From Puccinia triticina (lineage: Eukaryota; Basidiomycota; Pucciniomycetes; Pucciniales; Pucciniaceae), in contig NC_070575.1 of NCBI RefSeq assembly GCF_026914185.1, positions 2,997,001-3,061,000 on the forward strand: 64,000 nucleotides of DNA. Direction: 5' to 3'. The translations under genes were made by a program, and so were the position numbers. The notes below the pieces were generated by a model. That model saw only the letters and a program-made list of their open reading frames with translations. It did not search any database and was not told the origin of the DNA. Shown here in pieces: positions 14,780-52,827 of this stretch; position 1 is the stretch's first letter; each line of letters begins with the position of its first letter.

Positions 14780-15248
14780 CTCTTGATAACAGGTCTGGAT
14801 CGGTCATTGAGGGGACTCACACAACCGGTCATCCAGAGGACTCATACCTCTTGATGACCGGCGCAGACCGGTCATCAGTCACACGTCTCGATGACTGGTG
14901 TGTACCGGTCAACAAGGGGAGGTGCTACTCTTGATGACCGGTCTTTACCGGTCATTGAGGGGACTCCCACCTCTCGATGACCGGCGCGGACCGGTCATCA
15001 GTCACACCTCCCAATGACCGGCACAGACCGGTCATTGAGAGGACTCACACCTCTCGATGATTGGTCTGACCGGTCATCGAGAGGACTCACACCTCTCAAT
15101 GACCGGTCACCACCGGTCATTGAGAGGACCCACACCTCTCAATGATCGGTCAGACTGGTGTAAGACTCAAAAGTGTTCCTGAGAACCTTTTGCTGAATGG
15201 AGAAGGGGATGATGGAGGTGCAAACTTTGCCCTTCTATACTACCAGAT

Positions 15249-21009: not shown

Positions 21010-21599
21010 CACTACCAAGGTGGATGAATTTGCAATGTCGTATATTGATCATTTTTTTTCTTTTTTATTCCTGTTGATACGTTTGTCTGTTTTCCATGTC
21101 TCCTGAATACTCTTCTATAATCTCTCTCCTTCCAGCTGTGTTAGCTTCAAGCCGCAGGAATTTTTTTTTTTGATAAAATTCATGAATTTCTACATACACC
21201 ATTCAATTCTTCCTGAAAATGCAAGTTTTAGGATTAATCCAGGGTAGCTGAGGGGTCTCAATTTTTTTTCTTTTTTGACATCAACAATTGATGTTATCAG
21301 AAGTCTCCAAATCTACTTTTTTTCAAAATGGAAAAACATTGACCCTGACCTTTCTCATGAAACCCTCCGGCACTCATTCTTAACTTGGTTGGTTGAACTT
21401 GCGGAAGATATTGCATATCATACTGGGAGTACTACATGCATAGAATGCCTTTTTGAAATTAGTTTACCATGGGTTAGCTTATTTTTGTCAGGTTCTTTTT
21501 TTTATCTACTTTTGTTATCAACCACAGATTGATGAGGAATATTTCCTCAGAAAATTTCATTGGGAAATTTTTCTGCTTATGAAACCCAGAAATATTATA

Positions 21600-23395
21600 T
21601 TTGGGGTCACATCCCTTATGCAGCAGCTATAATCTGATCAGTTGCCAAATAGCACTACTTTGGTTGTTTCTTGGTGTTTCTGCAACTATATCTCATCCCA
21701 GCCTGGTAATTCTTCCAAAATATTGGTACCAAAATGTTTACAAGCACAAAAAGTTTCATAATGTACTTTTTCTGACCACAAAACCCCCAAATGTAGCACC
21801 TACAGTCTGATCAGTTTCCAAATATCACTACTTTGTAAGCTTCTTGGTTTTTCTGCCACTATATCTCATCCCAGCGTGGGAATTCTTCTGTCATATTGTA
21901 ACAAAAATATTCACAAGCCTCAAAAGTTTCATTACGTACCTTTACTGACCACAAAACCCCCAAATGTAGCAGCTACAGTCTGATCAGTTTCCAAATATCA
22001 CTACTTTGGTAGTTTCTGGGTGTTTCTGCCACTGTATCTCATCCCAGCGTGGGTATTCTTCTGCCATATGGTAACCAAAATGTTAACAAGCCCCCAAAGC
22101 TCCATTAAGTACCTTTTCTGACCACAAAACCCCCAAATGTAGCAGCTACAGTCTGATCAGTTTCCAAATATCACTACTTTGGTAGTTTCTGGGTGTTTCT
22201 GCCACTGTATCTCATCCCAGCGTGGGTATTCTTCTGCCATATGGTAACCAAAATGTTAACAAGCCCCCAAAGCTCCATTAAGTACCTTTTCTGACCACAA
22301 AACCCCCAAATGTAGCAGCTACAGTCTGATCAGTTTCCAAATATCACTACTTTGGTAGTTTCTGGGTGTTTCTGCCACTGTATCTCATCCCAGCGTGGGT
22401 ATTCTTCTGCCATATGGTAACCAAAATGTTAACAAGCCCCCAAAGCTCCATTAAGTACCTTTTCTGACCACAAAACCCCCAAATGTAGCAGCTACAGTCT
22501 GATCAGTTTCCAAATATCACTACTTTGGTAGTTTCTGGGTGTTTCTGCCACTGTATCTCATCCCAGCGTGGGAATTCCTCTGCCATGTGATTACCAAAAT
22601 GTTAACAAGCCCCCAAAGTTTTATTTTGTACCTTTGCTGACCACAAAACCCCCAAATGTAGCAGCTACAGTCTGATCAGTTTCCAAATATCACTACTTTG
22701 GTAGCTTCTGGGTGTTTCTGCCACTGTATCTCATCCCAGCGTGGGTATTCTTCTGCCATATGGTAACCAAAATGTTAACAAGCCCCCAAAGCTCCCTTAA
22801 GTACCTTTTCTAACCACAAAACCCCCGAATGTAGCAGCTACAGTCTGATCAGTTTCCAAATATCACTACTTTGGTATTTTCTGGGTGTTTCTGCCACTGT
22901 ATCTCATCCCAGCGTGATAATTCCTCTGCCATGTGATTGCCAAGATGTTTACAAGCCCGCAAAATTTCATTTTGTACCTTTGCTGACCACAAAACCCCCA
23001 ATTGTAGCAGCTACAGTCTGATCAGTTTCCAAATATCACTACTTTGGCAGTTTCTGGGTGTTTCTGCCACTTTATCTCATCCCAGCGTGGGTATTACTCT
23101 GCCATATGGTTACCAAAATGTTCAATAGCCCCCATAGTTTCATTGTGTACCTTTGCTGACCACAAAACCCCCAAATGTAGCAGCCACAGTCTGATCAGTT
23201 TCCAAATATCACTTCTTTGGCTGTTTCTGGGTGTTTCTGCCACTATATCTCATCCAGAGTGGGTATTCTTCTGCCATATGTTTACCAAAATGTTGAAAAA
23301 TCCCCAGTTTCATTAGTTACCTTGGCTGACCACAAAACCCCCAAATGAAGCAGCTACAGTCTGATCAGTTTCCATATATCACTACTTTGGCAGTT
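21600..23395 (+). repeat. 173-bp satellite array, left arm of copy 1
   Basis: About ten head-to-tail units. The phrase GTAGCAGCTACAGTCTGATC recurs at 21966, 22139, 22312, 22485, 22658, 22831, 23004 and 23177 (minor base changes), exactly 173 bp apart, then 170 bp to the next. Several neighbouring units (21966-22560) are nearly identical, implying recent homogenisation. Each unit contains CACTACTTTGGTAGTTTC, which resembles the element's own terminus CACTACCAAG when read on the other strand. Confidence 0.95.
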
Positions 23396-23399
23396 TCTA

Positions 23400-25400
23400 A
23401 GTAGTGATATTTGGAAACTGATCAGATTGTTACATTTGGTGGTTTTGTGGTCAGCAAAGGTACATAATGAAACTTGGAGGCCTGTGAACATTTTGGAAAC
23501 CATATGGCAGAACAATACCCACGCTGGGATGAGATACAGTGGCAGGAACACCCACTCCCAGAAACTGCCATAGTAGTGATATCTGGAAACTGATCAGACT
23601 GTAGCTGCTACATTTGGGGGTTTTGTGGTGAACAAAGGTACGTAATGAAATTTTGGACGCTTGTAAACATTTTGGTAACCATATGGCAGAAGAATTCCCA
23701 CACTGGGATGAGATATAGTGGCAGAAACACCCAGAAACAGCCAAAGAAGTGATATTTGGAAACTGATCAGACTGTGGCTGCTACATGTGGGGGTTTTGTG
23801 GTCAGTAAAGGAACATAGTGGAACTTTGAGGGCTTGTCAACATTTTTGTAGCCATATGGCAGAAGGATACTCACGGTGGGATAAGATATAGTTGCAGAAA
23901 CACCCAAAAACTGCCAAAGTAGTGAAATTTGGAAACTGATCAGACTGTAGCTGCTACACTTGGGGGTTTTGTGGTGAACAAAGGTACGTAATGAAATTTT
24001 TAACGCTTCTTAACATTTTGGTATCCATATGGCAGAAGAATACCCACGCTGGGATGAGACATAGTGGCAGAAACACCCGGAAACTACCAAAGTAGTGATA
24101 TTTGGAAACTGATCAGACTGTAGTTGCTACATTTGGGAGTTTTGTGGTGCAAAAGAAGGTACGTTGTGAAATTTTGGAAGCTTGTCAACATTTTAATAAC
24201 CATATGGCAGAAGAATACCCACGCTGGGATGAGATACAGTGGCAGAAACACCCAGAAACTGCCAAAATAGTGATATTTTGAAACTGATCAAACTGTTGCT
24301 GCTACATTTGGTGGTTTTGCGGTCAGCAAAGGTACATAATGAAACTTGGAGGCCTGTGAACATTTTGGAAACCATATGGCAGAAAAATACCCACGCTGGG
24401 ATGAGATACAGTGGCAGAAACACCCACTCCCAGAAACTGCCATAGTAGTGATATCTGGAAACTGATCAGACTGTAGCTGCTACATTTGGGGGTTTTGTGG
24501 TGAACAAAGGTACGTAATGAAATTTTGGACGCTTGTAAACATTTTGGTAACCATATGGCAGAAGAATACCCACGCTGGGATGAGATATAGTGGCAGAAAC
24601 ACCCAGAAACTAACAAAGTCGTGATATTTGAAAACTGATCAGACTGTAGCTGCTACATTTGGGGGTTTTGTGGTCAGTAAAGGTACATAATGGAAATTTT
24701 GCCGCTTTTAAACATTTTGGTAACACTCTGGCAGAAGAATTCCCACTCTGGGATGAGATATAGTGACAGAAACACCCAGAAACTACTAAAGTAGTGATAT
24801 TAGGAAACTGATCAGACTGTAAATGCTACATGTGGGGGTTTTGTGGTCAGTAAAGGAACATAGTGGAACTTTGAGGGCTTGTCAACATTTTGGTAACCAT
24901 ATGGCAGAAGAATTCCCACGCTGGGAAGAGATATAGTGGCAGAAACACCCAGAAACTGCCAAAGTAGTGATATTTGGAAACTGATCAGACTGTAGCTGCT
25001 AAATTTGGGGGTTTTGTGGTCAGTAAAGGTACATAATGAAATTTTTGAGGCTTGTGAATATTTTTGTTACAATATGACAGAAGAATTCCCACTCTGGGAT
25101 GAGATATAGTGGCAGAAAAACCAAGAAGCTACCAAAGTAGTGATATCCGGAAAATGATCAGACTGTAGGTGCTACATTTGGGGGCACCTGTGGTCAGCAA
25201 AAATACATTATGAAACTTTGTGTGCTTGTCAACATTTTGGTAACAATATTTTGGAAGAATTACCAGGCTGGGATGAGATATTGTTGCAGAAACACCAAGA
25301 AACAACCAAAGTAGTGCTATTTGGCAACTGATCAGATTATAGCTGCTGCATAAGGGATGTGACCCCAAAAACAATATTTCTGGGTTTCATATGCAGAAAA
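23400..25400 (-). repeat. 173-bp satellite array, right arm of copy 1
   Basis: The same monomer in inverted orientation (CTGATCAGACTGTAGCTGCTAC) for about eleven units. Two neighbouring stretches (about 23400-23750 and 24240-24600) are nearly identical over two units, a higher-order duplication within the array. It faces the left array directly at about 23398. Confidence 0.95.
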
Positions 25401-25794
25401 ATTTCCCAATGAAATCTTCTGAGGAAATATTCCTCATCAATCTGTGATCAATAACAAAAGTAGATAAAAAACTGATAAAAATATGCTAAACCATGGTAAA
25501 CTAATTTCAAAAAGGCCTTCTATGCATGTAGTCCTCCCAGTATGATATGCAATATCTTCAGGAAGTTCAACCAACCAAGAATGAGTGCAGGATGGTATCA
25601 TGAGAAAGGTCAGGGGCCATTTTTTTCCCCTTTTTGAAAAAAAGTAGATTTGGAGACTTCTGATAACATCAATTGTTGATGTAAACAAAAGAAAAAAAAA
25701 ATTTGAGACCCCTCAGCTACCCTGGATTAATCCTAAAACTTGCATTTTCAGGAAGAATTGAATGGTGTATGTAGCAATTCATGAATTTTATCAA

Positions 25795-27141
25795 GGGGCT
25801 TACTAAATGTACCCGGTTTTTCCGCGTTTGTACCTGGTTTTTGCGTACCCCCTTTTCCGCATGCGTACCCGGTTTTTTTCCACTCATTTCTACGCAAAGC
25901 AAATAATATCAAAATTCATCTAAAATGATGAACATAATTATCATGCAATCAGAATTTCAAAAAACTCAATTTCCAAATGATTAATTAATTTGTACCCAGT
26001 TTTTTGCATACATGCTTTTTTTGGGGTGAATACTAAGGGTATAGCTTTTTTGTTACATGCCCCAGCCGCACAAAAACCTCAGGACACTTATAATTGTGGA
26101 TATTCTACATCCCCTGAAATTTTTTGGATTTTCAGGGAGTGGGCGGTGGGCTTAGTAGGAAAATTCCCGCTAACTGAATAACATTTTTGTTACAATTCCA
26201 AACAAGCTAAAAATTTCAGGAATATTTAAAATCTGTATAATCTCTGTGTCCTGAAATTTTCAGCAATGGTGTGGCATAAAAACATGAAATATAAGGGGTG
26301 TGCGGCAGTCTTGAGGGGAAAAATCCGGCTAATTGAATAGCTTTTTTGTTACATATCACAGCAGCCCAAAAGCTCGAGTAAACTTTCAAATATGCATCTT
26401 TTCCTTGACCTTGAATTTTTAGCAATGTTGTGGCATCAGAACATGAGTTATATGGGGTGCGCAGTAGTAGGTATTATGACTACTGCGCATCCCTTATATC
26501 TCAGGTTATGATGCCACAACATTTCTAAAAATGTCAGGTCACAGAGGATATTCATATTTGAAATTTAAATCAAGTTTTTAGACTGCTGTGATATGTAACA
26601 AAAAAGCTATTCAATTAGCTGGATTTTTCCCCTTAAGACTGCCGCACACCCCTTATATCTCATGTTTTTATGCCACCCCATTGCTAAAAATTTCAGGACA
26701 TGGAGAATATACAGATTTTAAATATTCCTGAAATTTTTAGCTTTTTTGGAAATGTAACAAAAAAGTTATCCAGTTAGCGGGAAATTTCCTACTAAGCCCA
26801 CCGCGCACTCCCTGAAAATCCTAAAAATTTCAGGGAATGTAGAATATTCACAATCATAAGTGCCCTGAAATTATTTGGCGGCTGGGGCATGTAACAAAAA
26901 AGTTATTCCCCAAGTATATAACCCAGAAAAGGGGGTATGCAAAAAAAATAATTAATTAATTTTAATTGGTTTTTTTGGTATTCTGATTGCATGACAATTT
27001 TGTTCATCATTTTTGACCAATTTTGATATTACTTGCGTCGCATAGAAATGAGTAGAAAAAAACCGGGTACGCACGCGGAAAAGGGGGTACGCAAAAACCG
27101 GGTACAAACGCGGAAAGACCCGGGTACGTTTAGTAACCCCC
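25795..27141. mobile_element. 1.35-kb palindromic foldback element nested in copy 1
   Basis: Ends GGGGCTTACTAAATGTACCC and, inverted, GGGGGTTACTAAACGTACCC, flanked by TTTATCAA at 25787-25794 and 27142-27149, an exact 8-bp duplication. The undisturbed left arm of copy 1 carries TTTATCAA's complement once, supporting insertion. Almost the whole element is one inverted repeat centred near 26470, with GTACCCGGTTTTTGCGTACC-type repeats near each end. It has no ORF of substance. The 8-bp duplication suggests a hAT-type transposase, but the G-run terminus is unusual for that group. Confidence 0.8.
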
Positions 27142-27313
27142 TTTATCAAAAAAAAAAAAAAAAGATTCCTGCGGCTTGAAGCTAACACAGGGGGAAGGAG
27201 AGAGATTATAGAAGAGTATTCGGGAGACATGGAAAACAGACAAAGGTATCAACAGGAATAAAAAAAAAAAATGATCAATATACAACATTGCAAATTCATC
27301 CATCTTGATAGTG

Positions 27314-28150
27314 AAAGGATCCAACCACAAAGCAGCGGTTAGTGGTATACTAGACATACTGAGCAAGCACAATCTATGGCTAAAACCCAAAAAATGCGAG
27401 TTCTTGAGAGGAGAAGTCAAATATCTAGGCCTACTTATATCTTGCAACAGGTTGAGGATGGACCCGACAAAGGTCAAGGCTGTGACGGAGTGGCCGGTGC
27501 CCGTGAACGTGACCAAACTACAACGGTTCATTGGTTTTGCCAATTTTTACCGGCGCTTCATAGATCACTTCTCAGGAACAACAAGACCACTGCACGACCT
27601 AACCAAGCTGGGCACAAGATTTGTATGGGACAGGCGCTGTCAAGCCACGTTTGACGCATTGAAAATGGCTTTTACCACAGCCCCTATCTTGAAAATAGCC
27701 GACCCGTACCAACCATTTGTACTGGAGTGCGACTGCTCTGACTTTGCCCTTGGCGCGGTCCTGTCGCAAGCCTGTACCAAGGAAAATCTCCTTCATCTGG
27801 TCGCTTACCTATTGCGGTCTTTGATACAGGCAGAGCGGAATTACGAAATTTTTGACAAAGAGTTGTTGGCAATAGTGGTATCTTTCAAAGAATGGTGCCA
27901 TTATCTAGAAGGCAACCCTAACAGACTGAAAGCTATTGTCTACACAGACCACCGCAACCTCAAAAATTTCATGACTATCAAAAACTGACTCGACGCCAGG
28001 CAAGATGGGCGGAGACATTAGGGTGCTTTGATTTTGACATTGTATTCCGTCCGGGGCAGCAGGCAGCAAAACCCAATGCGCTGTCCAGACGACCCAATTT
28101 GGCGCCGTCAAAGGCGGACAAGCTCAGTTTTGGACAGCTGCTACAACCGA
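27314..28150 (+). pseudogene. Ty3/gypsy chromovirus RT C-terminus and RNase H
   Basis: Resumes RT after CACTA copy 1: LKPKKCEFLRGEVKYLGL, then the connection and RNase H region with FVLECDCSDFALGAVLSQ, NYEIFDKELLAIV and YTDHRNLKNF. The frame is lost at 27986-27988; the sequence continues one frame over from 27985 (TRRQARWAE), which a single A lost from the AAAAA run at 27980-27984 would explain. Coding similarity (QARWAETLGCFDFDIVFRPG, ALSRRPN) goes on to about 28130. RNase H acidic residues are visible in ECDCSD and DKELL. Confidence 0.85.
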
Positions 28151-28421
28151 ACATATCACACCCAAGACGTTTGCGGAAGTGGCGGCGTTCAACACGTGGT
28201 TTGAGGACAAATCGGTGGAGTTAGAAGACGCAGGACATTGGTTCGAGGGGGATGTTATGGGACTTGGAGAAAAAACGGCGGACAACAAGAGGGACGCACC
28301 AGAGATTCTGACAGATATTGAGCTGATAAGTGATATCCGTGACGCAACGCGCGCTGACGCTTGACTGACTGGACTTGTCAACAGACAACAGAGCAAAGAT
28401 CAACCTGGCGGTCAAAAATTT

Positions 28422-28685
28422 GTGTTAAGGGACGGTGTGGTGTACAGGGGGGGAGTGATTCAGGTACCAGCAAACAACAAGCTCAAGAAAGCAATCCTAC
28501 AAAGTTGTCACAAATGTCGCCTAGCGGGCCAACCCGGAAGATCAAAGACACTGGCTCTAGTACGCCAATGCTTTGATTGGCCGGGGATCAAGAAATTTGT
28601 CCACCAGTACGTGGACGGATGTGGGTCTTGTCAAAGAGTTAAGTCTTTGACCCAGAAGCCCTTTGGGACACTAGAAACCCTCCCC
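28422..28685 (+). pseudogene. Chromovirus integrase zinc-binding domain
   Basis: LRDGVVYRGG is followed by an H2C2-type integrase N-terminus: HKCRLAGQPGRSKT, then the WPGIKKFV helix and CGSCQR. The second His of the usual AGHPG motif is Gln. The frame runs on towards the integrase core but is cut at 28689 by CACTA copy 2. The stretch 28150-28420 upstream is more degraded and out of frame in places. Confidence 0.8.
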
Positions 28686-29339
28686 ATACACTACCAAGAT
28701 GTCTGAATTTGCGATGTTGTATATTGATCAATATAGCGTATATTGATCAATTTTTTTTATTCCGCTTGATAACTTTGTCTGTGTTCCATGTCTCCTTAAT
28801 ACTCTTCCATAATCTCTCTCCTTCCCCCTGGGCTAGCTTCAAGCCACAGGAATCTTTTTTTTTTTGCCTGATAACATTCGTAAATTTCTACATACACCAT
28901 TCAATTCTTCATGAAAAAAAGACATTGCAAGTTTTAGGATTAGTCCAGGATGGCTGAGGGGTCTCAATTTTTTTTTTCTTTTTTTTTACTTCAACAGTTG
29001 ATGTTATCAGAAGTCTCCAAATCTACTTTTGTTCAAAAAAGGAAGAAATTGACCCCTGACCTGTCTCATGATACCATCCTGCACACATTGTTAATTTGGT
29101 TGGTTTAACTTCCTCAAGATATTCCACATCATACTTGAAGTGCTACATTCATGGAAGGCCTTTTTGAAATTAGTTTACAAATTACCATGGTTTAGCATAT
29201 TTGTGTCAGGTTCCCTTTTTTATTTACTTTTTGTCAACCACGGATTAATGAGGAATATTTCCACAGAAAATTTCATTGGACAATTGTTCTGCATAGAAAA
29301 CCCAGAAATATTGTGTTTGGGGTCACATCCATTATGCAG

Positions 29340-30835
29340 CAGCTACAATCTAATCAGTTGCCAAATATCAATACTGTAGTAGTTTCTTGGTGCTTCTGCC
29401 ACTATATCTCATCCCAGTGTGGGAATTCTTCCAAGATATTGTTTCACAAATGTTGAAAAGCGCCCAACGTTTCATTATGTACCTTTTTGTGTACCTTTAA
29501 TGACCACAAAACCCCCAAATGTAGTAGCTACAGTCTGATCGGTTCCCAAATATCACTACTTTGGTAGTTTCTTGGTGTTTCTGCCACTATATCTCATCCC
29601 AGCGTGAGAATCCTTCTGCCATATGGTTGCCAAAATGTTAAGAGGCCCCCAAAGATTCATTATGTACCGTTACTGACCACAAAACCCCCAAATGTAGCAG
29701 CTACAGTCTGATCAGTTCCCAAATATTACTACTTTGGTAGTTTCTTGGTGTTTCTGCCACTATATCTCATCACAGCGTGGGAATCCTTCTGACATATCGT
29801 TAAAACAATGTTTAGGGGCCCCCAAAGCTGCAATATGTACCTTTAATCACCACAAAACCCCCAAATGTAGAAGCTACAGTCTGATCAGTTCCCAAATATC
29901 ACCACTTTGGTAGTTTCTTGGTGTTTCTGCCACTATATCTCATCTGAGCATGGGAAATCTTCTGCCATGTAGTTAGCAAAATGTACACAAGCCCCCAAAC
30001 TTTCATTATGTACCTTTACTTCCCACAAAACCCCCAAATGTAGAAGCTGCAGTCTGATCAGTTCCCAAACATCACTACTTTGGTAGTTTCTTGGTGTTTA
30101 AGCCACTATATCTCATCTCAGCATGGGAATCCTTCTGCCATATGGTTACCAAAGTGTTTGGAGGTTCTCAAAGACTCATTATGTACCTTTAATCACCACA
30201 AAACCCCCAAATGTAGCAGCTACAGTCTGATCAGTTTCCAAATATCACTACTTTGGTAGTTTCTTGGTGTTTCTGCCACTATATCTCATCCCAGCCAGGG
30301 AATCCTTCTGCCTAATGGTTAGCAAGCTATTGACCGGCCCCCAAAGTTTCATTACGTACCCTTACTGACCACAAAACCTCCAAATGTAGCAGCTACAGTC
30401 TGGTTGGTTCCCGAATATCAACACTTTGGTAGTTTCTTGGTGTTTCTGCCACTATATCTCATCTCAGCGTGGAAATCCTTCCGCCATATGGTTACAAAAA
30501 TGTCCATAGGCCACCAAAGTTTCATTATGTACCTTTACTGACCACAAAACCCCAAAATGTAGCAGCTACAGTCTGATCAGTTCCCAAATATCACCACTTT
30601 GGTAGTTTCTTGGTGTTTCTGCCACTATATCTCATCCCAGCGTGGGAATCCTTCTATGATATTGTTATCAAAAAGTTTACAGGCCCCCAAAGATTCATTT
30701 TGTATCTTTAATCACCACAAAACCCCCAAATGCAGAAGGTACAGTCTGATCAGTTCCCAAATATCAACACTTTGGTAGTTTCTTGGTGTTTCTGGCACTA
30801 TATATCATTCCAGCGTGGGAATCCTTCTTCCATAT
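29340..30835 (+). repeat. 173-bp satellite array, left arm of copy 2
   Basis: About 8.5 units. The homologous point of the monomer falls at 29521, 29694, 29867, 30040, 30213, 30386, 30559 and 30732, every step exactly 173 bp. Units differ by substitutions (about 10-15% by eye) but not by indels at this scale. They read TTCCCAAATATCACTACTTTGGTAGTTTCTTGG where copy 1 units mostly have a GGG variant, so each copy has its own subfamily. Confidence 0.95.
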
Positions 30836-31464
30836 CCAAGTTTATTAAAGCCTCTGAATCACAAAACAAACCTTCAAGGTTTTCCCCTACAAATCTCCAA
30901 AAATCACAAAAAGAAAATCAAGGGTTTCCCCTTTACAACTTGCATGAAAAAAACATGGAGGGTTTTCCCTCTTGAAATGCCAAAATCAACAAAAACCTGC
31001 AAACAGCCACCTAACATCAGCAAGCTGATGCACCATGGCCCACCGTCCATCCCTGTCTAGCAGGGTTAAAAAACAGTGAGAGGATGACCCCCAGCGCGCC
31101 GCATTGAAGGCATTATGCAAAGGGGGGCCAACGAGTTTAGCCCCTCAAACTGTGCAAGTTGAAAAGCAGAGGGGGTTGAGGATGAACCGCACGCTGGAAG
31201 TACAGCGGCAGAGGACGTCCTGGGGGACACAAACAAGCAAGCCAAACCTCTTTTTATAAACAATCTGGCACTACCTAGCACTCAACAGACTCCACCAGCG
31301 CACTTGACTGCCAAATCCGTCTAGCCTTGACAACTCCGCCACCGCCATGCACATCCGGTATCTCTGACCTGCATGGCGGTGCTTTGACTGGCTAGGCGTT
31401 GTCAACAAGACTGGAGTTTTTGCTGAGACCCTGGTCTCCCACCCATCTAATATACATACATACA

Positions 31465-32171
31465 ATGAAGTCACCACCTCGCCATTTTACTTGCCAGGGG
31501 CGCGCGTGCTCACACCACAACCCTTGCCCCTCTTGCCGCTGTTCTGCCTCCCAGCCGTTCCCTCGCCAACCACCAGACATGCGAACCAGCTGCTACAGCC
31601 ACCTCCATCCAAAACCAAAACCAACACCCAACAGACCAACAGCAGGGATCCAACCCTCACCCTGAATCAGACACACCATTGACCTGATCCCGCTCAATAT
31701 CCCGCCCCCCGCTACTACACCCACACCCCTTAAATACCCGTATCCTGAAACACTCAACTGCACACAAGTCACCGGCAAAGGTGAGCCCCCCCCCCACACA
31801 CACATACTCTCTCTCTCTCACAAACCACTACTGAAACAGCCTGTGGGTTTTTGCCCGTAGATTCTGGATTTTGAGATCAGTAATATGCCTTGCTCCTTGC
31901 AATCAACAGCGCCCTGGAACGGACAAATGTCAAGCAACAGAGTAATATCCGGACGCTGAAAGCCTGGCTGGCCGGGGCCGGGCCCCTCTGTCATCCAAGC
32001 AACGCCAGCGAATTGAGCAAGTCTGCCTTTGGCGGGACTGCTGCTGCTACTGCGGGGGGCGAGGAGGACAAGCCACTGGAGGGCCTATTTGCTCAGGACC
32101 CGCTCTTTTCTCACCTCATCCACGCCATCCAGCCCTCATCCACAACGCCTCCAATGCACTTGTCCCCCTAA
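31465..32171 (+). CDS. Possible captured host gene fragment
   Basis: The stretch 31890-32171 encodes a hydrophilic protein segment (LERTNVKQQSNIRTLKAWLAG, then acidic GGEEDKPLEGLFAQDPLFSH) ending at a stop. A GTGAGC donor near 31781 and a TTGCCCGTAG acceptor near 31860 could join it to an upstream exon starting at ATG 31465. The Pro/Ser-rich upstream frames are less convincing. The composition is GC-richer than the satellite arms, consistent with captured DNA. The family is not recognised, and a chance ORF cannot be excluded. Confidence 0.3.
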
Positions 32172-33011
32172 CCCCTCCGCACCCCTGCTTCATCCACCAA
32201 AAAACCAGCCTGGGCAAGCTGCACATAAAACCCCTTAATCCGCTTGCACCAACGGCCTCAACCTGCGCAAAATTGAACAGCATGCTGACCTCTTGATCTT
32301 TTCTGTATCAAACTTGTTAGCCAAAACAGCTGATCAAGCCATTAGAAGACCCAAACCGGGTATTCATCACCAAGATCCTCAACACCAACGCCCAGCTGAG
32401 CTCTTCCTGCTTCAACCCGCCCGCCAAGCCCCCCACGCCAACTTTCTCATGGGAGGTGCCCGGAGAGCGCAGCTCCTAAGGCCCCAATGTCCACACAGCC
32501 ACAGGGACACACCCAGCGCTACCTGAGTCGGAGTTCTCCTGCAGCTAGAGTGATACTCTGGGAATTTCCCAGAGAGGCAATGATGCCATAGAACTTGCGC
32601 CAGAGAGAGGCGGCAAGTTCTAGAGCCAGGCTTGCAAAGCCTAGGTTTCTCCCTGGGAAAGCAGAGGCCTTCATAAGGAGGCCAACAAAGCAGCCGCTGG
32701 CAGCAGGAGTTTTCCCTGCTCCATCTCAGCTTTGTCGTACTTCTTTTCCCGGGAGAAACATTTTTCTTTTTTCACACCGCCCACCCACCCATCAAGACAG
32801 AGCCCAGGAGTGGGGCTTAGCGGCTCGTCCCCCACTCCCTGGACTCTCATTTGCTGTTTCTGCTTGGAAATTTGTCTTGAAACTGCCAGCCAGGATGAAC
32901 CTGGCCACACTGGCAGCAAGAGACCACTTTCCCCTTTGACCCACACATGCCTAGGCGCATAGTGAGAAACGGGCTCCCCTCCCGGTGTGAGAAATAAGAG
33001 TGGTTAGCTGG

Positions 33012-33832
33012 TGTAGAATGTCCGCTGACTGCCTTCTTCAAGAATATTGAGGTGCGGGCTGTGTGATTGTCGGTAACTCGGCTCCGCACTGCTACTTTCC
33101 GCTAGCCTTCAGCGCTCCTTTACCAAGCCTGATCTATAGCGTAATAATCCGCAAGTGAATAAAGCTCCGCACTTTGTAAGCACCAGAATCCGCAGTAACT
33201 CTCTAATAAGAATAAGAACACAGACAATCTCCCAATAACTCTTGTACGTTCGTAGTTGTAAGTACAAAATGATGAGTGAAATCCGTAATCAATGATAGGA
33301 TAAAGATAATAGGATGAGGAAAAGAAAGAGAAAACCCTCAGCCACCCCCCTCCTTCCCTCCACGCATGTCACCGTTCCCACCCAATCCCGCACACCTGAC
33401 ACTTTCCCGCACTAGTCCTCCAGCTCCGCCTGCTATCCCGCTTGTCACTCTCCCAGACTCCGCTCCTCTCTGACGCTTGCCCTCCCACCGTCCTCTGTCT
33501 AGCCCCCGTCAGTCGTTCTCTGGCCACCGCCTTCACCCCGGTTCCACCCGCTCTGGCTGTCATGGCTCACCCGCTGACGCGCCGCTACTACCAGTCCACG
33601 TGTGTAGTCCCGCCGCAGTCCAGCCCTGTCTTTTCTGCTCCGATCCAAATACCCAATCCGAAATCCGCAATCCGCAATCCGCAATCCGCAATCCGTGCAT
33701 TCCAATCCGCGCGTGACTTTCCGTAAGCTTTCCTAGTGTGCTTTCCTGACCTCATCCTCAGTGCTTATGTCACCGGAATGCACTCTGCCTGAGCGGCTTT
33801 GTGCATTCCCCGCCCGCATGGACATTCTACCA
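33012..33832. mobile_element. Candidate LTR-like repeat
   Basis: Starts TGTAGAATGTCCGC and ends GGACATTCTACCA, giving TG...CA ends that are inverted copies over about 10 bp. It contains the AATCCGC microsatellite. No target duplication is visible and no second copy is in the window, so this is weak. Confidence 0.3.
33654..33696. repeat. AATCCGC microsatellite
   Basis: Six consecutive 7-bp units, AATCCG followed by A, C or T, in GC-rich surroundings. Confidence 0.85.
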
Positions 33833-34048
33833 CGCTTGCCTATGTAAATCACCACACCGGAAGGAGGGCAGAGCCCCAACGCCTAGCGGCGTCAGACTCA
33901 GTAGCCGGCACAGGTGAACAGCGGAGAGACTGGCCCACGCCACAACGCGTGCGGGCAGTGCGCTGTCACCCTTTGCCCCCATGGGCGTGCATCCATGTGA
34001 GCGGGGTGGACAGTCTCTACCTACTCATGCACATCCAAACCCACCCGT

Positions 34049-35035
34049 TGTAAGACTCAAAAGTGGTAATGAAACCCTTTTGCTGAATGGTGAAGGGTAT
34101 GGTGGAGTTGCAAGCTCTTCCCTTCTGTTATCAGTCAACAAGACCCACCAAGCTCAGCTTGGCAAGTTTTATTAAGTGATAGGTCTGGTCTGTTCCAGAT
34201 GAAATCTGTTTGACTGGCAACGTGTAAGTGTTTTAATTACTTTCTTATAAGGGTTTAATTGTTGTTATAAGGGTTGATTTATTTTTATAAGGGTTTTAGG
34301 ATTTGAGTGTGGATGAGTGTTGGGTGACTTGTGAGTTCTGGGTGAAGAACTGGGGAGCAAACCACTGGGGGTGGAGAGAGCTCCTTTTATAGACAAAAGT
34401 GGAGCCCCAAAGGGGCTTGTGGGTTAGGGTTTCAGCTAATCTAGACAACAGGATGAGGGATTTTAGCTGGTGGGAGTAGATATAAATGATGTCATAACCC
34501 CCTCAGGGGCGCATGAATGGTGTCAGAATATACAACAGAACATTCTAAACATGCCAGGGGTGCATACATGATGTCAGAATATACAAAAGAACATTCTAAC
34601 GCATGCATGGGGTGACAGTAGACTGCATGAGCTGTCATACAGGGGGAATTAGTGTATAAACAAAGTCTGAGGCTGCAGAAACAGTGTAAATGATGTCATC
34701 CTATGTATATAAAGGAGTGTATGTAGTTAATATGTAATGAGTGTAGCCTGACAGGGAGATGTATGTTTTTATCCTGTGATATGTATAAGTTTACTACTGT
34801 GAAACTTGGGTTGGGGCAGGTGCAGCTGGGTTACTGGGGCTGGCCGTGTGATAAGTGTCCATGAGGGGTAACTTCTTATCCAGCGGGGTTGTAATGACCG
34901 TTCCAGTGGGGACTAGGGGTGAAATTGGCCGTAGAATCCATTTCTGGGGTCCATTTGGTAGTATCTTGAGGCCTAGTATGAGTAATTGTGTAGCATAGAA
35001 AAACGTTTTATTTTTCCACTTTTCCGTCTACCACA
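34049..35035. mobile_element. 987-bp solo LTR nested in copy 2
   Basis: Begins TGTAAGACTC and ends GTCTACCACA, the same termini as the LTR at 15159-15890, and both share the first about 120 bp (CTTTTGCTGAATGG, AAGACCCACCAAG, TTGGCAAGTTTTA) and a TTATAGACAAA motif (here near 34388). The middle is diverged and about 255 bp longer. The flanks give an imperfect duplication (CCGTT/CCATT). No internal retroelement domain lies beside it. Confidence 0.65.
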
Positions 35036-35910
35036 CCATTGAGAAGACTGCTTTGCGGACAATCTCAGTGGCGCTTGCGGCACATCTCAACCGTCCTCAC
35101 TTGCCAAAACATGCCGCTATCAGTGTGATCTAGCTGCCCCTGCCCATCACATCCTCTTTCTCAGGCCCTGACAGACCTGGGTTGGGGCCGGGTTCATCCA
35201 GAAACTGCCCCCTTGACCGCCTGGACTCTGCCCTCCCCTCTCATAAGAACCAGAATCTTGGGGATCCCCCGGCTCTTGCCGTTTACCCCCGTCCTCATCT
35301 CGGCGACCCAAACAGTGGCCGCCATTAGGCCTTTTTTTGTTGGCAAAGTGTGCACTATCACTCTGGCCCCCCTTACCCCTCCCCCTCCCCCTCAAAAACA
35401 CACACACACTTGTTGTCGCGGCTTGGCCACCCGTCCGGCGTACACGCCGACCCACCGCTCATAAGTGCACCCCAATGAGAAACCCATTGTCAACAGGACA
35501 ATTATTTCCCGGCCTCTGCCAATCAACCCTTGGCGTTTCTGAGGACAGTCGCGTTGTCCTGCTTATAATAGCCTTTCTTGTCTCCCCTTTGATGTCTTCT
35601 TATCATCCTTGCCAAACACGCATAACTGCCCCCAACTCCAACCAAATCATACCAAATAACACACAGTATCTGCTCTGTTACCATTCTCTGGTATTGATTT
35701 GTGAATTTATATAGATATCTTACCTTTACCCAATCATTCAACCCAAAAGAAATGCAGATAGTTTATTTGAAGAGTGGGGGAGGATGGGGTGCAAATGATC
35801 TCAGATGGATCATTGCTCTCCATGAATATGTATTACTCTGAGGAAGAAGATTCTGGAGGTGGAGAGTATTGTCTGCAATTAGGTCTCATCAGTTCAAATT
35901 GATGTATGTT

Positions 35911-35964
35911 GTTGACTGATGCTACATTGTTGACTGATGCTACATTTTTGACTGATGCTACATG
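35911..35964. repeat. 18-bp triplicated repeat
   Basis: Three head-to-tail copies of GTTGACTGATGCTACATT, the third starting with T and ending with G. Confidence 0.9.
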
Positions 35965-37269
35965 CACATAATAGCTCCTTTTCAGCTTGATACACAACAG
36001 ATTAATTATCAGCTCCAGGCCATGACTATTCCCCCTTTGCTTGTCAGTGACTGTATACTATTCTTGGCATGGTCACTTGGCATCCAACTCATTTCTACAA
36101 AATCAACGTTTGCTGGTTTTTAGTTTGCCTGATTGAAATATCCACAGCCATCTGAGCAGTGCATGCTTGTTTTTAATGAAGAGATTTCCTTTCTACCAAT
36201 ACTGCAACAATTACAATACATGTATTTTATAGGCTATACATTGTATTGTATTTTCATGCAGATACATTCAATTACAATAAATATGTTTTGTATTGGTTTC
36301 ACCAAACAATTCCAATGATACATATGTACAGTTTTTGAAAAAAAAATTGGATACAGATAAATTTATTTTGATATTTTTCCAATACAATACAGTGAAATAC
36401 AATTATATGTGTTGTACTTGTTGCACCTTTGTTTCTACTTGGGATTTCTGCAACGGGGATTGATGCAATTTACACACTGACTCATCCAAAACTGTGTTAT
36501 TCATTTTTAATGTGTCACTGTTGGCCAAAAAAGAAAAAATGCAAGTTCTCTGCTTGATAACCCATTAACAAGCCACACAATTATTAGTGTGCAGGCTGGC
36601 CTTCTGGTGTCTTTTTCAGGAAACATTTTTTTCAATGCTGTGAATTGAACCCCTGATGCCCTGCAGAGGTGCAGCCACCTTGTCTCATATTACTGAAAGC
36701 TGGATTTTTTGGTTTCTGTGTAAAAGGGTCTTGCACAAACAATATTGATTCTTGCTTATCTTAGTGATCATTAAACAACTCCAAGTGATTCATGCATAAT
36801 TGTGAAAACATGCTGTTTGAGTTTGGTAATGCCATTTTTCAGGGGAAAATATTGCATTTAAAATTGGAAAAAAGGTGCATTTATGTTTGAGATTGGGCAA
36901 AACATTGTGAAAACATCATGTTTGGTAATGCCATTTTTTATCCAAGATTATCTGATTTAATATTGGGCCTTAGGCACATATGTAGCTTCAAGACTTGGCA
37001 TGACATTTATTCAGGAAAGGATAGAGGTGAAGCAAATTGTATATTTCACATACAGTTTAGGGTGGTGATTGGGCTGCATCTGAATTTTCTGACTGAAAAA
37101 AAGGAACATATGGTTCACACAGGCCACACTTGGTATCATGTAAGATAAACTGAGTTTTTAATCCTGTGCCATAGATCTTGTGGATGGGCTGGGTCTGATT
37201 TTTCTATCCTTGCCAGAGCCCATACCTGTAAGTGTGTTTTTTGCCCTGCAGCGGCGCAGCCGCCTTGGC

Positions 37270-38830
37270 CTCTAGTAGTTACAAAAATGTTTACAGGCCC
37301 CCAAAGATTCATTATGCACCTTTACTGACCAGCGGCTTGTAAACATTTTGGTAACCATATGGCAGAAGGATTCCCACACTGGTATGAGATATAGTTGCAG
37401 AAACACCAAGAAACTAGCAAAGTAGTGATATTTGGGAACTGATCAGACTGTAGCTGCTACATTTGGGGGTCTTGTGGTCATTAAAGGTACATAATGAATC
37501 TTTGGTGGTCTGTAAACATTTTTTTAACTATATGACAGAAGGATTCCCACGCTGGCATGAGATATAGTGGCAGAAATACCAAGAAACTACCAAAGTAGTG
37601 ATATTTGGGAAGTGATCAGACTGTAGCTGCTACATTTGGGGATTTTGTGGTCATTAAAGGTACACAATGAATCTTTGGGGGCCTGTAAACAAATTGGTAA
37701 CCATATGGCAGAAGGATTCTCATGGGGGGATGAGATATAATGGTAGAAACACCAAGAAACTACCAAAGTAGTGAAATTTGGGAACTGATCAGACTGTAGC
37801 TGCTACATTTGGGGGTTTTGTGGGCAGTCTACGTACATGGTGAGCCTTTGGGGGCTTTTTAACATTTTGGTAACAATCCGGCAGAAGGATTCTCATGCTT
37901 GGATGAGATCTAGTGGCAGAAACACCAACAAACTACCAAAGTCGTGATATTTGGGAACTAATCAGACTGTAGCTGCTACAGTTGGGGGTTTTGTGGTCAG
38001 TAAAGGTACATAATGAGAATTTGGGGGGTTTTCAAAATTTTGGTAACCATCTGGCAGAGGGATTCCCACGCTGGGATGAGATATAGTGGCAGAAACACCA
38101 AGAAACTACCAAAGCAGTGAAATTTGGGAACTGATCAGACTGTAGCTGTCACATTTGAGGGTTTTGTGGTCTGTCTAGGTACATAATGAGCCTTTGGGGG
38201 CTTTTCAACATTTTGGTAACCATCCGGCAGAAGGATTCCCATGCTTGGATGCAATATAGTGGCAGAAACACCAAGAAACTACCAAAGTAGTGATATATGG
38301 CAACTGATCAGACTGTAGCTGCTACATTTGTGGGTTTTGTGATCAGTAAAGGTACATAATGAGAATTTTGGTAACCACACGGCAGAAGGATTCCCACGCT
38401 GGGATCAGATATGGTGGCAGAAACACCAAGAAACTACCAAAGTAGTGATATTTGGGAACTGATCAGAATGTAGCTGCTACATTTGGGGGTTTTGTGGTCA
38501 TTAAAAGTACAAAATGAATCTTTGGGGGCCTCTAAACATATTGGTAACCATATGGCAGAAGGATTCCCATGGGGGATGAGATATAATGGCAGAAACACCA
38601 AGAAACTACCAAAGTAGTAAAATTTGGGAACTGATCAGACTGTAGCTGCTACATTTGGGGGTTTTGTGGTCAGTAAAGGTACATAATGAGAATTCAGGGG
38701 CTTCTCAACATTTTGGTAACCATCCGGCAGAAGGATTCCCACGCTGGGATGAGATATAGTGGCAGAAACACCAAGAAACTACCAAAGTAGTGATATATGG
38801 CAACTGATCAGATTGTAGCTGCTGCATAGT
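37270..38830 (-). repeat. 173-bp satellite array, right arm of copy 2
   Basis: About nine inverted units. The phrase TAGCTGCTAC or a close variant falls at 37451, 37624, 37797, 37970, 38143 and 38316 (173 bp steps), then 38471 (155, one deleted unit), 38643 (172) and 38816 (173). The matching left arm lies 6.4 kb away in opposite orientation. Confidence 0.95.
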
Positions 38831-39639
38831 GGATGTGACCCCAAACACAATATTTCTGGGTTTCATATGCAGAACAATTGTCCAATGAAATTTTTTATGG
38901 AAATATTCCTCATTAATCCGTGGTTGATAACAAAAGTAGATAAAAAAAAGAACCTGACAAAAATATGCTAAACCATGGTAAACTAATTTCAAAAAGGACT
39001 TCTATGCATGTAGCACTTAAAGGATGATGTGCAATATCTTCAGGAAGTTCAACCAACCAAATTAACAATGTGTGCAGGAAGGTATCATGAGAGAGGTCAG
39101 GGGTCAATGTTTTTCCTTTTTTGAAAAAAAGTAGATTTGGAGACTTGTGATAACATCAACTGTTGAAGTAAAAAAAAGAAAAAAAAAAAAGAAAAAAAAA
39201 TGAGACCCCTCAGCCATCCTGGATTAATCCTAAAACTTGCAATGTCTTTTTTTCATGAGTGATATAATGGTATTATGGTACTGAAGATGGCTGAATCAGT
39301 TGAATCTGATTTCAAAGTTGAAGAGACCAGCACTGTAGGTTGCCTACAAAAAAAATTTTGGGGGCTTTATGTTGAATTTTGCATTTTTTATTAAATTAAT
39401 CAGCGATTATATCACCTATAATTATATTGGTGCCAAACGGGGCCTTATGAATGTTATCAGGCAAAAAAAAAAGATTCCTGTTGCTTGAAGCTAACTCAGG
39501 GGGAAGGAGAGAGATTATAGAAGAGTTTTAAGGGGACATGGAACACAGACAGAGGTATCAAGAGGAATAAAAAAAAAATTATCAATATACGCTATATTGA
39601 TCAATATACAACATTGCAAATTCATCCATCTTGGTAGTG

Positions 39640-40746
39640 ATACCAGCAGGCCTGTGGACTGATATTTATTATGACCTCATAACGGACTTGCCCCAGTCAA
39701 ACAACTGCAACAGTATTCTCACGGTGGTGGACCAATTGACAAAGATGAGCCACTTTATAGGATGCCGCAAGGACATGACAGCAGCAGCGCTAGCAGATTT
39801 GATGCTCCGCCACGTTTGGAGACTGCATGGAACCCCTAAAACCATCACTTTGGATAGGGGAAGCATTTTCATATCTCAGATCACGCAAGAACTAAGCAAG
39901 CGGTTGGGGATTTGGCTATGCCCATCGACAGCGTACCACTCACGGACTCACATCCAATCTGAAATAGTGAACAAAGCCGTAGAGCAGTTTTTACGACACT
40001 TTGTATGATATAGGCAGGATGATTGGGAACCGCTGCTAGCAATGGTTGAATTTGCATACAACAATAACCAGCATACATCCACCGGGATGTCCCCCTTCAA
40101 AGAGAATTATGGATTCGACCTGACCTACGGCGAAATACCTTTTTCAGAGCAATGCGTGATGGCAGTGGCGGAGCGACTACAGACAATAGCTGAAGTCCAG
40201 AGGGAGCTGAAAGCAGCACTGGAGCAGGCGCAATCCTCAATGAAAACTCAGTTTGACAAGAAGGTCTGGAAGACGCCGGACTGGAAGGTTGGAGACTCAG
40301 TTTGGCTCAAAAGCAAAAACATTTTGACGACTCGGCCGAGTCCCAAACTCTCCCATTGGTGGCTAGGGCCATTTCTCATTGCACCCAAAATGTTGCCATT
40401 GGTGTATAAACTAACATTGCCTCTTTCAATGCAAGGGGTACACCCCACTTTCCATGTCTCTTTGATTAGGAAATTTGAAGCAGACGCAATCGGAGGCCGA
40501 GAAGCGGCCCAACCAGCACCAGTGCTAATAGAGGGCAAAGAGGAGTGGGAGGTGGACAAGGTTCTTGACTGTTGGAAAAGGAGAAAGCGGCGCAAATATC
40601 TCATTGGGTGGAGGGGATACGGACCGGAATCAAACTCTTGGGAACCTGAAGGCAACCTCACCAACTGCAGGGAGCTACTTGAAGATTTCAAAAAAAAATT
40701 CCCACACGCAACGGGCCGGCACAAGAGGGGAAGGCAGTTTAAATGA
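39640..40746 (+). pseudogene. Chromovirus integrase core and chromodomain
   Basis: Continues the integrase after CACTA copy 2. DLITDLPQSN and LTVVDQLTKMSHF hold the first catalytic Asp, LDRGSIF the second, and HIQSEIVNKAVEQFL the Glu. An in-frame TGA at 40006-40008 interrupts it. The second half (40009-40746) runs through VEFAYNN, the GPF-type module HWWLGPFLI, and a C-terminal chromodomain with WEVDKVLD, YLIGWRGY and NSWEPEGNL, ending at 40746. The chromodomain marks a chromovirus; in that group it directs integration to modified histones. The aromatic cage positions look preserved. Confidence 0.88.
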
Positions 40747-45133: not shown

Positions 45134-45508
45134 CTATGGCTTTGTAGAGCTAAACTGACGTGCTAGCCCCATCTTTGTTTTGCAATTTTCAAGGTGATGA
45201 TAGATCCCAGAACTCTTCAGGTAGTTGCTGACCAACAAGGCTTGCGCTGTGAGGCTGTCAGTCAGTGGTGGACTATTGCCTAGCATATCAACCTTGATTG
45301 CTCTGTGGAGCTTGTCCCAGCTATTCAACAGATCCAATGAAGCCTGTCCCACCGCACCACTACCCTCCCCACTGGCAATCCTTTCAGAGGACCTGTCCTC
45401 ATTCTTGACACAAAAGTATTTCATAGTGTTACACAAACTGGCAAGAGCAGTGATCATCCCAATTACTACTGTTAGCTGTTCATGGCAAAATACAGTCAGC
45501 TTTGTCAT
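45134..45508 (-). CDS. Possible coding fragment, unknown
   Basis: A 124-aa minus-strand ORF with mixed composition: a hydrophobic stretch near the start, then DRSSERIASGEGSGAVGQ, then SLDLLNSWDKLHRAIK. No motif or neighbour identifies it. The overlapping plus-strand ORF (45225-45554) is of comparable length, so this may be chance. Confidence 0.2.
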   Translation of the reverse strand: MTKLTVFCHEQLTVVIGMITALASLCNTMKYFCVKNEDRSSERIASGEGSGAVGQASLDLLNSWDKLHRAIKVDMLGNSPPLTDSLTAQALLVSNYLKSSGIYHHLENCKTKMGLARQFSSTKP

Positions 45509-46149: not shown

Positions 46150-46490
46150 ATATGCACCCACACACATGAGTAAGCACTTCTTCCTGTTGATACTCCCAAA
46201 AACAATGTTTTCTTGGGATTTTGTCATCTCTTACCTGCGCTCTTTATCTTGCCGCACCCCATTTGTCTGGCTTTTAAGTTCTCTCAGTCTTTGCAATCAC
46301 GCTAGAGTTGGAATAAGTAGCTTACCCACACACATGAGCAAGCACTTCTTCTTGTCACCACCCCCAAAAACAACACTTTCTTGGGAGTATTTCATTTCAT
46401 GTCTACACTGTTCCTGTTCCTGCCCCCCACCAGTCTGGCCTTTAAGGTCTCTCAGTCTTTGCCATTGACGCTTACTCCCAAGAATGGCCC
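46150..46490. repeat. 168-bp tandem duplication
   Basis: Two units share ACCCACACACATGAG at 46156 and 46324, then CACTTCTTC, an ACTCCC(A)AAAACA...TTTCTTGGGA hairpin, and CTCTCAGTCTTTGC near the end. The 45767-46468 plus-strand ORF crosses both units but reads like non-coding sequence. The stretch 46560-46860 has weak repeats of about 110 bp (AAACTCTATNTATGNTGA). Confidence 0.65.
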
Positions 46491-52819: not shown

Positions 52820-52827
52820 AAATAAGA

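What the first reader, a model, noticed from the sequence alone, without database searches (positions are those of the whole stretch)
21010..39639. CACTA-ended elements whose arms are inverted 173-bp satellite arrays
Two copies (21010-27313 and 28689-39639) have CACTACCAAGATG termini, exact 3-bp duplications (AAA, ATA) and arms made of the same 173-bp tandem monomer in inverted orientation. CACTA termini with a foldback, satellite-built body is not an architecture I know as a described class. Directly seen: termini, duplications, monomer period, inversion. Known: CACTA elements make 3-bp duplications. Inferred: a trans-mobilised foldback family that can carry and spread satellite DNA.
Basis: partly seen in the sequence, partly recalled or inferred. 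Interest (0 to 1): 0.88.

Follow-up and report, generated by a model that had tools for sequence, protein, structure and literature searches.

The report
CACTA-ended foldback transposons built from satellite
In this large fungal genome (likely a rust fungus) a family of transposons with no gene of its own consists of two long runs of one 173-base satellite repeat facing each other between CACTA ends, and it is likely moved by a CACTA transposase made elsewhere in the genome, which would scatter ready-made satellite arrays over the chromosomes.

Summary
A (21010-27313) and B (28689-39639) belong to a family with 359 exact 13-base ends in a 122.8-Mb, 18-contig genome, hence at least about 180 elements or remnants. 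All 22 whole copies examined (A, B, 20 fetched) have terminal domains around plus arrays followed by minus arrays of the 173-bp monomer. Exact 3-bp duplications flank 18 of 23 copies; paralogous Ty3/Gypsy copies read gapless through A's and B's empty sites. Ten copies share one arm junction; oriented by it, both terminal domains are closest to their own side in 9 of 10 (one only marginally) and exchanged in one: the foldback moved with its satellite arms. Unit number then changed (6 to 25 per arm in that group).

Closest known: foldbacks with tandem-repeat arms (Tetris, Galileo, Tm1), outside CACTA, and a plant CACTA with one captured satellite array. The CACTA-ended, all-satellite, high-copy version is a new variant of a known kind. 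No autonomous partner was found (0 of 150 scored PF02992 domains inside 68 placed end pairs), so mobilisation in trans is inferred; activity today is not shown.

The parts
21010..27313 (.). Copy A, whole foldback element, inserted in the reverse-transcriptase part of a Ty3/Gypsy retroelement
   Evidence: Ends CACTACCAAGGTG / CACTATCAAGATG, TSD AAA; empty site in paralogs L052 and L054
21007..21009 (.). Target-site duplication AAA, left copy of A
27314..27316 (.). Target-site duplication AAA, right copy of A
21010..21617 (+). A, left terminal domain, with the subterminal motif TATATTGATCA near the end
   Evidence: Alignment of 44 ends; motif counts
21618..23398 (+). A, plus arm: about 10-11 units of the 173-bp monomer
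23399..25351 (-). A, minus arm: about 11-12 units; it abuts the plus arm directly
25352..27313 (-). A, right terminal domain, interrupted by a nested palindromic element at 25786-27150
28689..39639 (.). Copy B, whole foldback element, inserted further along the same Gypsy retroelement
   Evidence: Exact CACTACCAAGATG at both ends, TSD ATA; empty site in L054
28686..28688 (.). Target-site duplication ATA, left copy of B
39640..39642 (.). Target-site duplication ATA, right copy of B
28689..29333 (+). B, left terminal domain with repeated TATATTGATCAA
29334..30835 (+). B, plus arm: about 9 units
30836..37273 (.). Nested insertion in B's plus arm (approximate edges), read as not part of the foldback
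   Evidence: Plus-monomer remnant reappears at about 37274-37332; no homology with the centres of the other 21 copies
37334..38827 (-). B, minus arm: about 9 units
38828..39639 (-). B, right terminal domain

Best explanation
These are foldback transposons without a gene of their own, with CACTA ends and 3-bp target duplications, whose body is two inverted arrays of one 173-bp satellite, and they are likely moved in trans by a CACTA (EnSpm, PF02992) transposase encoded elsewhere in the genome. Shown: ends, duplications, empty sites, inverted arms, copies at many loci, and a shared arm junction that traces ten copies to one founder foldback. Inferred: the transposase would bind the 13-base ends together with the subterminal TATATTGATCAA repeats, cut out the element and reinsert it, so that the two satellite arms travel as a unit. 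Inferred from comparison of copies: after insertion, pairing of the arms with each other or of units within an arm (unequal exchange, gene conversion or break repair) adds and removes units and sometimes flips the centre. The satellite would therefore spread by transposition and be resized in place.
For: 359 exact ends, mostly in inward-facing pairs where placed, none of them with a base other than T at position 16 and 334 of 359 continuing NNTGAATTTG. 22 of 22 whole copies have plus arrays followed by minus arrays. Exact 3-bp TSD in 15 of 20 fetched copies, plus A, B and L059 = 18 of 23, against 12 of 380 in the cross-copy control. Gapless empty sites for A (L052, L054) and B (L054). Subterminal TATATTGATCAA: mean 2.1 per 120-bp end, absent from 3 of 44 ends, absent from both strands of 45.2 kb of window outside the elements. 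Apex group of ten copies with side-specific terminal domains. In that group arms run 25|10 to 6|19 units; elsewhere 53 plus-strand monomer matches within 9.8 kb, with one 0.95-kb interruption, and 20|2. Monomers are more alike within a copy (0.867 across arms, 0.875-0.886 within an arm) than between copies (0.827). No ORF above 167 aa in 19 of 22 copies; of the other three, L047 and L031 hold nested elements (an LTR retroelement and an hAT transposon) and L029 a 279-aa frame without Pfam match. At least 150 PF02992 domains in the genome.
Against: No autonomous member found: 0 of 150 PF02992 domains inside 68 end pairs, and about as many outside as inside near ends (5 v 3 within 10 kb, 9 v 8 within 20 kb). 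A CACTA family with ~99% identical copies shows none of the ends in 21.3 kb. 5 of 20 fetched copies lack an exact TSD. Median identity of terminal domains between copies is 91.6%, best 98.5%, so recent movement is not shown. In the apex group the side-1 end of L040 is only marginally closer to its own side (0.932 v 0.928) and joins the side-2 branch in the tree (support 0.895). Which step resized the arms was not observed.
Confidence: 0.82

Rival explanations
1. An ordinary satellite array misassembled or chopped up so that it looks like elements.
For: 173-bp tandem arrays and palindromes are hard to assemble in general (recalled); one small orphan array with no end found in the 3.2 kb read exists (L051).
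Against: Conserved terminal domains at both sides, exact 3-bp duplications, gapless empty sites, and, of the first 100 listed monomer words (all on contig 1), 98 within 20 kb (91 within 10 kb) on the inner side of an exact end.
Confidence: 0.01
2. The family has its own autonomous member, with these ends, the satellite arms and a transposase gene inside; the copies seen are its internal-deletion derivatives.
For: Tm1, a foldback family, has a transposase-coding member (PMC3169594, passages read). Only 240 ends were placed against 359 exact ones and 591 first-look candidates for the terminal 120 bp, and only 150 of 179 PF02992 candidates were scored.
Against: 0 of 150 domains lie inside 68 pairs; the centres of B, L031 and L047 are unrelated to one another, and those of L031 and L047 are nested elements; the two long pairs sampled held retroelement frames beside satellite (L049) or mostly satellite (L055).
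Confidence: 0.2
3. Another transposase type with 3-bp duplications (PIF/Harbinger-like) moves them and the CACTA ends are coincidental.
For: PIF/Harbinger elements also make 3-bp duplications (PMC2213677, abstract start in the listing).
Against: Of the 15 duplications in fetched copies only one (TAA) fits the TWA preference recalled for PIF/Harbinger, and the ends are CACTA with repeated subterminal motifs.
Confidence: 0.05
4. A dead family: the copies are relics that no longer move, and the inverted satellite arms are only resized by recombination. (Not exclusive of the best explanation, which concerns how they spread.)
For: Median 91.6% identity between terminal domains; no partner found.
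Against: Does not contradict past transposition; some ends are up to 98.5% alike, and no insertion polymorphism could be tested here.
Confidence: 0.4

Closest known systems
Tetris (Drosophila virilis foldback element; PMC4079207, passages read)
   Same: Gene-less foldback; terminal domain plus a tandem-repeat domain (about 220-bp units) in inverted arms; unit number varies between copies; no autonomous partner found; repeats also found as satellite arrays.
   Different: Tetris has 8-10 bp duplications, only three structurally complete copies, and its repeat shares a 37-bp stretch with its terminal domain. Here duplications are 3 bp, ends are CACTA, there are at least about 180 elements or remnants, and no stretch shared by terminal domain and monomer was detected.
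Galileo (P superfamily) and FARE (Mutator-type), read through passages of PMC4079207 and PMC3169594
   Same: Foldback structure; in Galileo the internal tandem repeats of the inverted repeats hold extra transposase-binding sites.
   Different: Transposases of the P or Mutator superfamilies. A CACTA foldback was not mentioned in the passages read.
Tm1 (Mutator/foldback, root-knot nematodes; PMC3169594, passages read)
   Same: Composite inverted repeats, a mostly gene-less family, consistent duplication length.
   Different: 9-bp duplications, a ~14-bp internal motif, and a transposase-coding member of Mutator (Phantom) type.
CACTA element Jozin of Chenopodium with a captured satellite array (PMC8978399, passages read)
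   Same: CACTA ends, and a 171-bp satellite array (32.5 units) inside an element; the satellite is dispersed along the chromosomes.
   Different: One array on one side of a transposase-coding element; foldback structure is not mentioned. Here two inverted arrays are the whole body and there is no gene.

Membership tests
CACTA (EnSpm) superfamily, non-autonomous | CACTA(C/G) terminal inverted repeats | tested here: met
   359 exact 13-base ends; placed ones mostly in inward-facing pairs
CACTA (EnSpm) superfamily, non-autonomous | 3-bp target-site duplication | tested here: met
   18 of 23 copies exact; empty sites
CACTA (EnSpm) superfamily, non-autonomous | Repeated motifs in the subterminal region | tested here: met
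   TATATTGATCAA, mean 2.1 per 120-bp end, present in 41 of 44 ends, none in 45.2 kb of window outside the elements
CACTA (EnSpm) superfamily, non-autonomous | Encodes a TNP2-type (PF02992) transposase (autonomous members only) | tested here: not met
   0 of 150 scored domains inside 68 placed pairs; so membership is provisional, by ends and duplications only
CACTA (EnSpm) superfamily, non-autonomous | Mobilised by a CACTA transposase | not testable with these tools
   Needs an activity test or a partner with the same ends
Foldback elements (structural class) | Long inverted arms made of internal tandem repeats, little or no centre | tested here: met
   22 of 22 whole copies have inverted arrays; 12 of 22 have no other stretch of 150 bp or more (13 by the mask, but A's nested element was masked by A's own end)
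Tetris-type foldback | 8-10 bp duplication | tested here: not met
   The longest direct repeat touching the ends is 3 bp in 15 of 20 and shorter in the other five
Tetris-type foldback | Repeat unit shares sequence with the terminal domain | tested here: not met
   382 of 400 shuffled monomers score at least as high against the outer 630 bp
PIF/Harbinger | 3-bp duplication of TWA type (recalled) | tested here: not met
   1 of 15 exact duplications (TAA) fits

The most novel reading that the evidence does not exclude
A CACTA transposition system has turned a satellite into a mobile genome-wide repeat: founder foldbacks with ready-made inverted satellite arms spread to at least about 180 sites, and each copy then acts as an arm-to-arm recombination machine that flips the centre (L043) and grows or shrinks the arrays from 2 to about 50 units, so the genome's dispersed library of this satellite is made by transposition first and amplification second.
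Probability: 0.45. Interest if true: 0.65.

Novelty: new variant of a known kind. Interest (0 to 1): 0.52.

Why it matters
How satellites become dispersed and where their arrays begin is an open question. Here the moving unit, its duplications, its founder junctions and the later change in unit number can all be read in one genome. It would add CACTA to the superfamilies that have produced foldbacks, alongside P and Mutator, which supports the view that foldbacks arise repeatedly from unrelated transposons. Each copy is a long near-palindrome, so the family is a candidate source of inversions and of double-stranded RNA (both untested here).

Tried and rejected
Monomer carries the terminal 13-mer (extra transposase sites as in Galileo): best match 9 of 13; 1196 of 3000 shuffles do as well by that measure; rejected. 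A TGATCA core is shared by the subterminal repeat and the monomer and is intact at that position in 84% of 495 monomers, but a 6-base palindrome is weak evidence and I do not build on it.

Monomer derived from the terminal domain, as in Tetris: 382 of 400 shuffles score as high; rejected at this sensitivity.

Autonomous partner: the 20 PF02992 loci L009-L028 share no DNA with the elements; a CACTA family with ~99% identical copies (L050/L056, extended by L057 and L058) has none of the ends in 21.3 kb (the 21 kb did share a 100-bp piece at 91% and a few shorter ones with a non-satellite stretch of L029, read as a repeat nested in both). A PF02992 domain 6.6 kb inside a C11 end proved to lie about 1.5 kb beyond the right end of a complete 5.1-kb foldback (L059). 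Around the two PF02992 genes of the window only weak CACT-starting pairs with a 3-bp match were found (best 12 of 16 bases at 42920-57937; 9 of 16 at 725-9700), which I read as chance. Both are nested, not the partner.

B's centre as the original loop: rejected, read as a nested insertion; its own ends were not worked out.

Species: not settled. Best named proteins are Puccinia triticina at 44-59% identity for a transposase and Puccinia coronata at 66% for the Gypsy; unnamed proteins are closer for the Gypsy (up to 78%). 18 contigs and 122.8 Mb resemble the P. triticina haplotype implied by PMC12210899 (Helitrons 2.6% = 3.2 Mb; passage read), but a 772-aa transposase with near-identical copies here has only 51-54% matches named P. 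triticina.

Sampling limits: of 37 pairs in the first 100 listed ends, 20 were fetched whole, all under 9 kb, so long copies are under-represented; of longer pairs only interior pieces L049 and L055 were read. Searches listed 100 of 107 and 100 of 141 places, so late contigs are under-sampled, and two rows (C17:2220299, C5:6155773) were not entered into the 240 ends. Copies with divergent ends were not sampled, apart from A.

An earlier count gave the duplication tally as 16 of 20; the correct figure is 15 of 20.

Novelty searches: (full text of the held open library only). Listings were read as shown; some searches found more papers than were listed (10 of 25, 12 of 97, 12 of 137, 10 of 15). 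Passages were read of PMC9659126, PMC4079207, PMC8978399, PMC12210899, PMC3169594, PMC10977897 and PMC9927501. No CACTA foldback with satellite arms was seen; papers outside that library were not searched.
Full report
OBSERVATION. The two elements are where the finder put them. A runs 21010-27313 between AAA duplications, B 28689-39639 between ATA duplications. Tandem Repeats Finder gives 173-bp arrays at 21618-23398 and 23399-25351 in A, and at 29334-30835 and 37334-38827 in B. Monomer BLAST confirms opposite orientation of the two arms and finds no monomer elsewhere in the window. A's ends differ from the 13-mer by one base each; B's are exact.

GENOME-WIDE. The window lies in contig 18 of a 122.8-Mb, 18-contig genome. 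The exact 13-mer occurs 175 times on + and 184 on -, against 2 and 0 for the reversed motif. None of the 359 has a base other than T at position 16, and 334 of 359 continue as NNTGAATTTG, so the exact 13-mer appears to mark this family alone. Of the first 100 listed places, 37 form inward-facing pairs under 45 kb. Of 240 ends placed, neighbours within 15 kb are 56 inward, 8 outward, 2 and 0 in the same direction, and 68 pairs under 30 kb have a median length of 7.4 kb.

COPIES. Twenty whole copies were fetched (L029-L048; all under 9 kb). All 20, and A and B, have the order terminal domain, plus arrays, minus arrays, terminal domain. The longest direct repeat touching the ends is exactly 3 bp in 15 of 20 and shorter in five (L034, L036, L043, L046 and L047). 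Left and right flanks taken from different copies agree in 12 of 380 combinations. With A, B and L059 (TAT) the count is 18 of 23. L059 was picked because it lies near a transposase gene, not at random. The duplications are diverse (GTA, AAT, TAA, TAT, ATA, TCT, TCA, TGA, TCC, TGT, ATT), which does not suit the TWA preference recalled for PIF/Harbinger.

EMPTY SITES. A and B lie in one Ty3/Gypsy retroelement (RT-RNase H ORF at 27275-27988; Tf2-type SH3 and chromodomain at 40009-40746). Its paralogs L052 and L054 align gapless over 120 bp across A's joined flanks (88% and 87%), and L054 across B's (85%), each with a single target site: AAA and ATA in L054, AAG in L052. In one search six paralogs at 88-91% span A's joined flanks with no change in length.

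TERMINAL DOMAINS. 44 ends align over about 640 bp with a median pairwise identity of 91.6% (best 98.5%) between copies. The outer 120 bp hold on average 2.1 copies of TATATTGATCAA (none in 3 of 44 ends), which is absent from both strands of 45.2 kb of window outside the elements, resembling the subterminal repeats of CACTA elements.

ARMS. In the 22 copies 552 monomer matches were counted. Adjacent units are 0.886 alike, units of the same arm 0.875, of the other arm of the same copy 0.867, of other copies 0.827 (495 near-complete units). By the mask, 13 of 22 copies have no further stretch of 150 bp or more outside ends and satellite; A is one of them only because its nested element was masked by its own end, so 12 is the fair count. 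Centres seen in the rest share no DNA with one another, apart from a 1-kb piece in L041 and L042. Where checked these centres are nested: B's sits inside a plus monomer, L047's is an LTR element with 99.9% identical 806-bp LTRs, L031's holds a hAT transposase domain, and a sampled 26-kb pair holds retroelement frames (zinc knuckle, weak RT match) beside satellite (L049). Longest frames are at most 167 aa in 19 of 22 copies; L029 (279 aa, no Pfam match), L031 and L047 are the exceptions. The interior of a 12.4-kb pair (L055) has 53 monomer matches, all plus, in 9.8 kb with one 0.95-kb interruption.

FOUNDERS. Ten copies (L030, L033, L034, L036, L037, L038, L040, L043, L044, L045) share the junction between their arms at 87-99% identity over 128-150 bp. 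Oriented by this junction alone, their terminal domains are more alike on the same side (0.946 and 0.960) than across sides (0.938). Copy by copy, both ends are closest to their own side in nine; in L043 the sides are exchanged. L040 is marginal (side 1: 0.932 v 0.928), and in the tree its side-1 end joins the side-2 branch (0.895), which otherwise holds the side-2 ends and L043's side 1 (0.979). A second junction is shared by L035, L046, L048 and L059 (94-99%), and a third by L041 and L042 (92%). So whole foldbacks, with arms already inverted, were copied to new sites from a few founders. Within the first group arms run from 25|10 to 6|19 units, so array length changed after the founding. L043 fits an inversion between its arms; since it lacks a full duplication, exchange between two copies is not excluded.

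IS THE SATELLITE FREE ELSEWHERE? A 19-base word of the monomer occurs 1229 times in the genome. Of the first 100 places, all on contig 1, 91 lie within 10 kb and 98 within 20 kb on the inner side of an exact end; two words belong to an orphan array of about two units with no end in the 3.2 kb read (L051). From the word's frequency in the 22 copies the genome would hold roughly 6300 monomers, about 1.1 Mb (rough).

MECHANISM. The ends, 3-bp duplications and subterminal repeats are those of CACTA elements, and PF02992 transposases are numerous (150 of 179 candidates scored, all over the cut-off). The transposase was not linked to the family: none of the 150 domains lies inside the 68 pairs, and numbers inside and outside ends are alike (3 and 5 within 10 kb, 8 and 9 within 20 kb). 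The one near case read (C11) is a foldback beside a transposase gene. Mobilisation in trans is therefore the likely but unproven step, and filing under CACTA is provisional, by ends and duplications.

COMPARISON. Foldback elements with tandem-repeat arms are known: Tetris (PMC4079207, passages read; 8-10 bp duplications, TIR-220 repeats, no partner found), Galileo (P superfamily, as cited there) and Tm1 (PMC3169594, passages read; Mutator type, 9-bp duplications). A CACTA element with one captured 171-bp satellite array is known in Chenopodium (PMC8978399, passages read). Ten literature searches (listed in Tried and rejected) showed no CACTA foldback with satellite arms. Hence a new variant of a known kind.

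LIMITS. Species is inferred only as a likely Puccinia-like rust. Present activity is not shown. No second haplotype or relative could be compared.

Noticed in passing
window 25786-27150: A second, unrelated palindromic element (86% inverted over 1.4 kb; ends near GGGGCTTACTAAATGTACCCGG) is nested in A's right terminal domain between what reads as an 8-bp duplication TTTATCAA: a foldback inside a foldback, of another superfamily.
   Followed up: partly
window 3109-5490 and 50972-51697: Two CACTA-type (PF02992) transposase genes or fragments flank the region; only weak CACT end pairs were found round them.
   Followed up: partly
G000 C18:1427300-1448600 (L057, L050, L058), C2:8019072-8028372 (L056): A CACTA-type transposase family with about 99% identical copies; two copies match over a full 9.3 kb without reaching an end, and a palindrome TCATGTACGCGCGTACATGG recurs in and around it.
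   Followed up: partly
L047 1871-6835: An LTR element with 806-bp LTRs 99.9% identical, a 4-bp duplication GCGC and an 874-aa frame without Pfam, NCBIfam or PDB match, inserted in a satellite arm: a recent insertion into an older foldback.
   Followed up: partly
L031, element positions about 2859-6477: A hAT transposon (PF05699 domain, inverted CAACACTGGGCCGG ends, duplication CCACACG) nested in a satellite arm.
   Followed up: partly
window 14824-15159, 15893-16034, 16351-16636: Arrays of about 43-bp units with an ACCGGTCAT..ATGACCGGT palindrome; not examined.
   Followed up: no
window about 39257-39450: The right terminal domain of B seems to be interrupted by a short AT-rich insertion (GTGATATAATGG ... 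ATTATATCACC), seen by eye.
   Followed up: no
L055 (C1:6111400-6121200): A long plus array in which a pattern of unit phases repeats about 2.05 kb (12 units) apart (by eye), suggesting block duplication inside the array.
   Followed up: no
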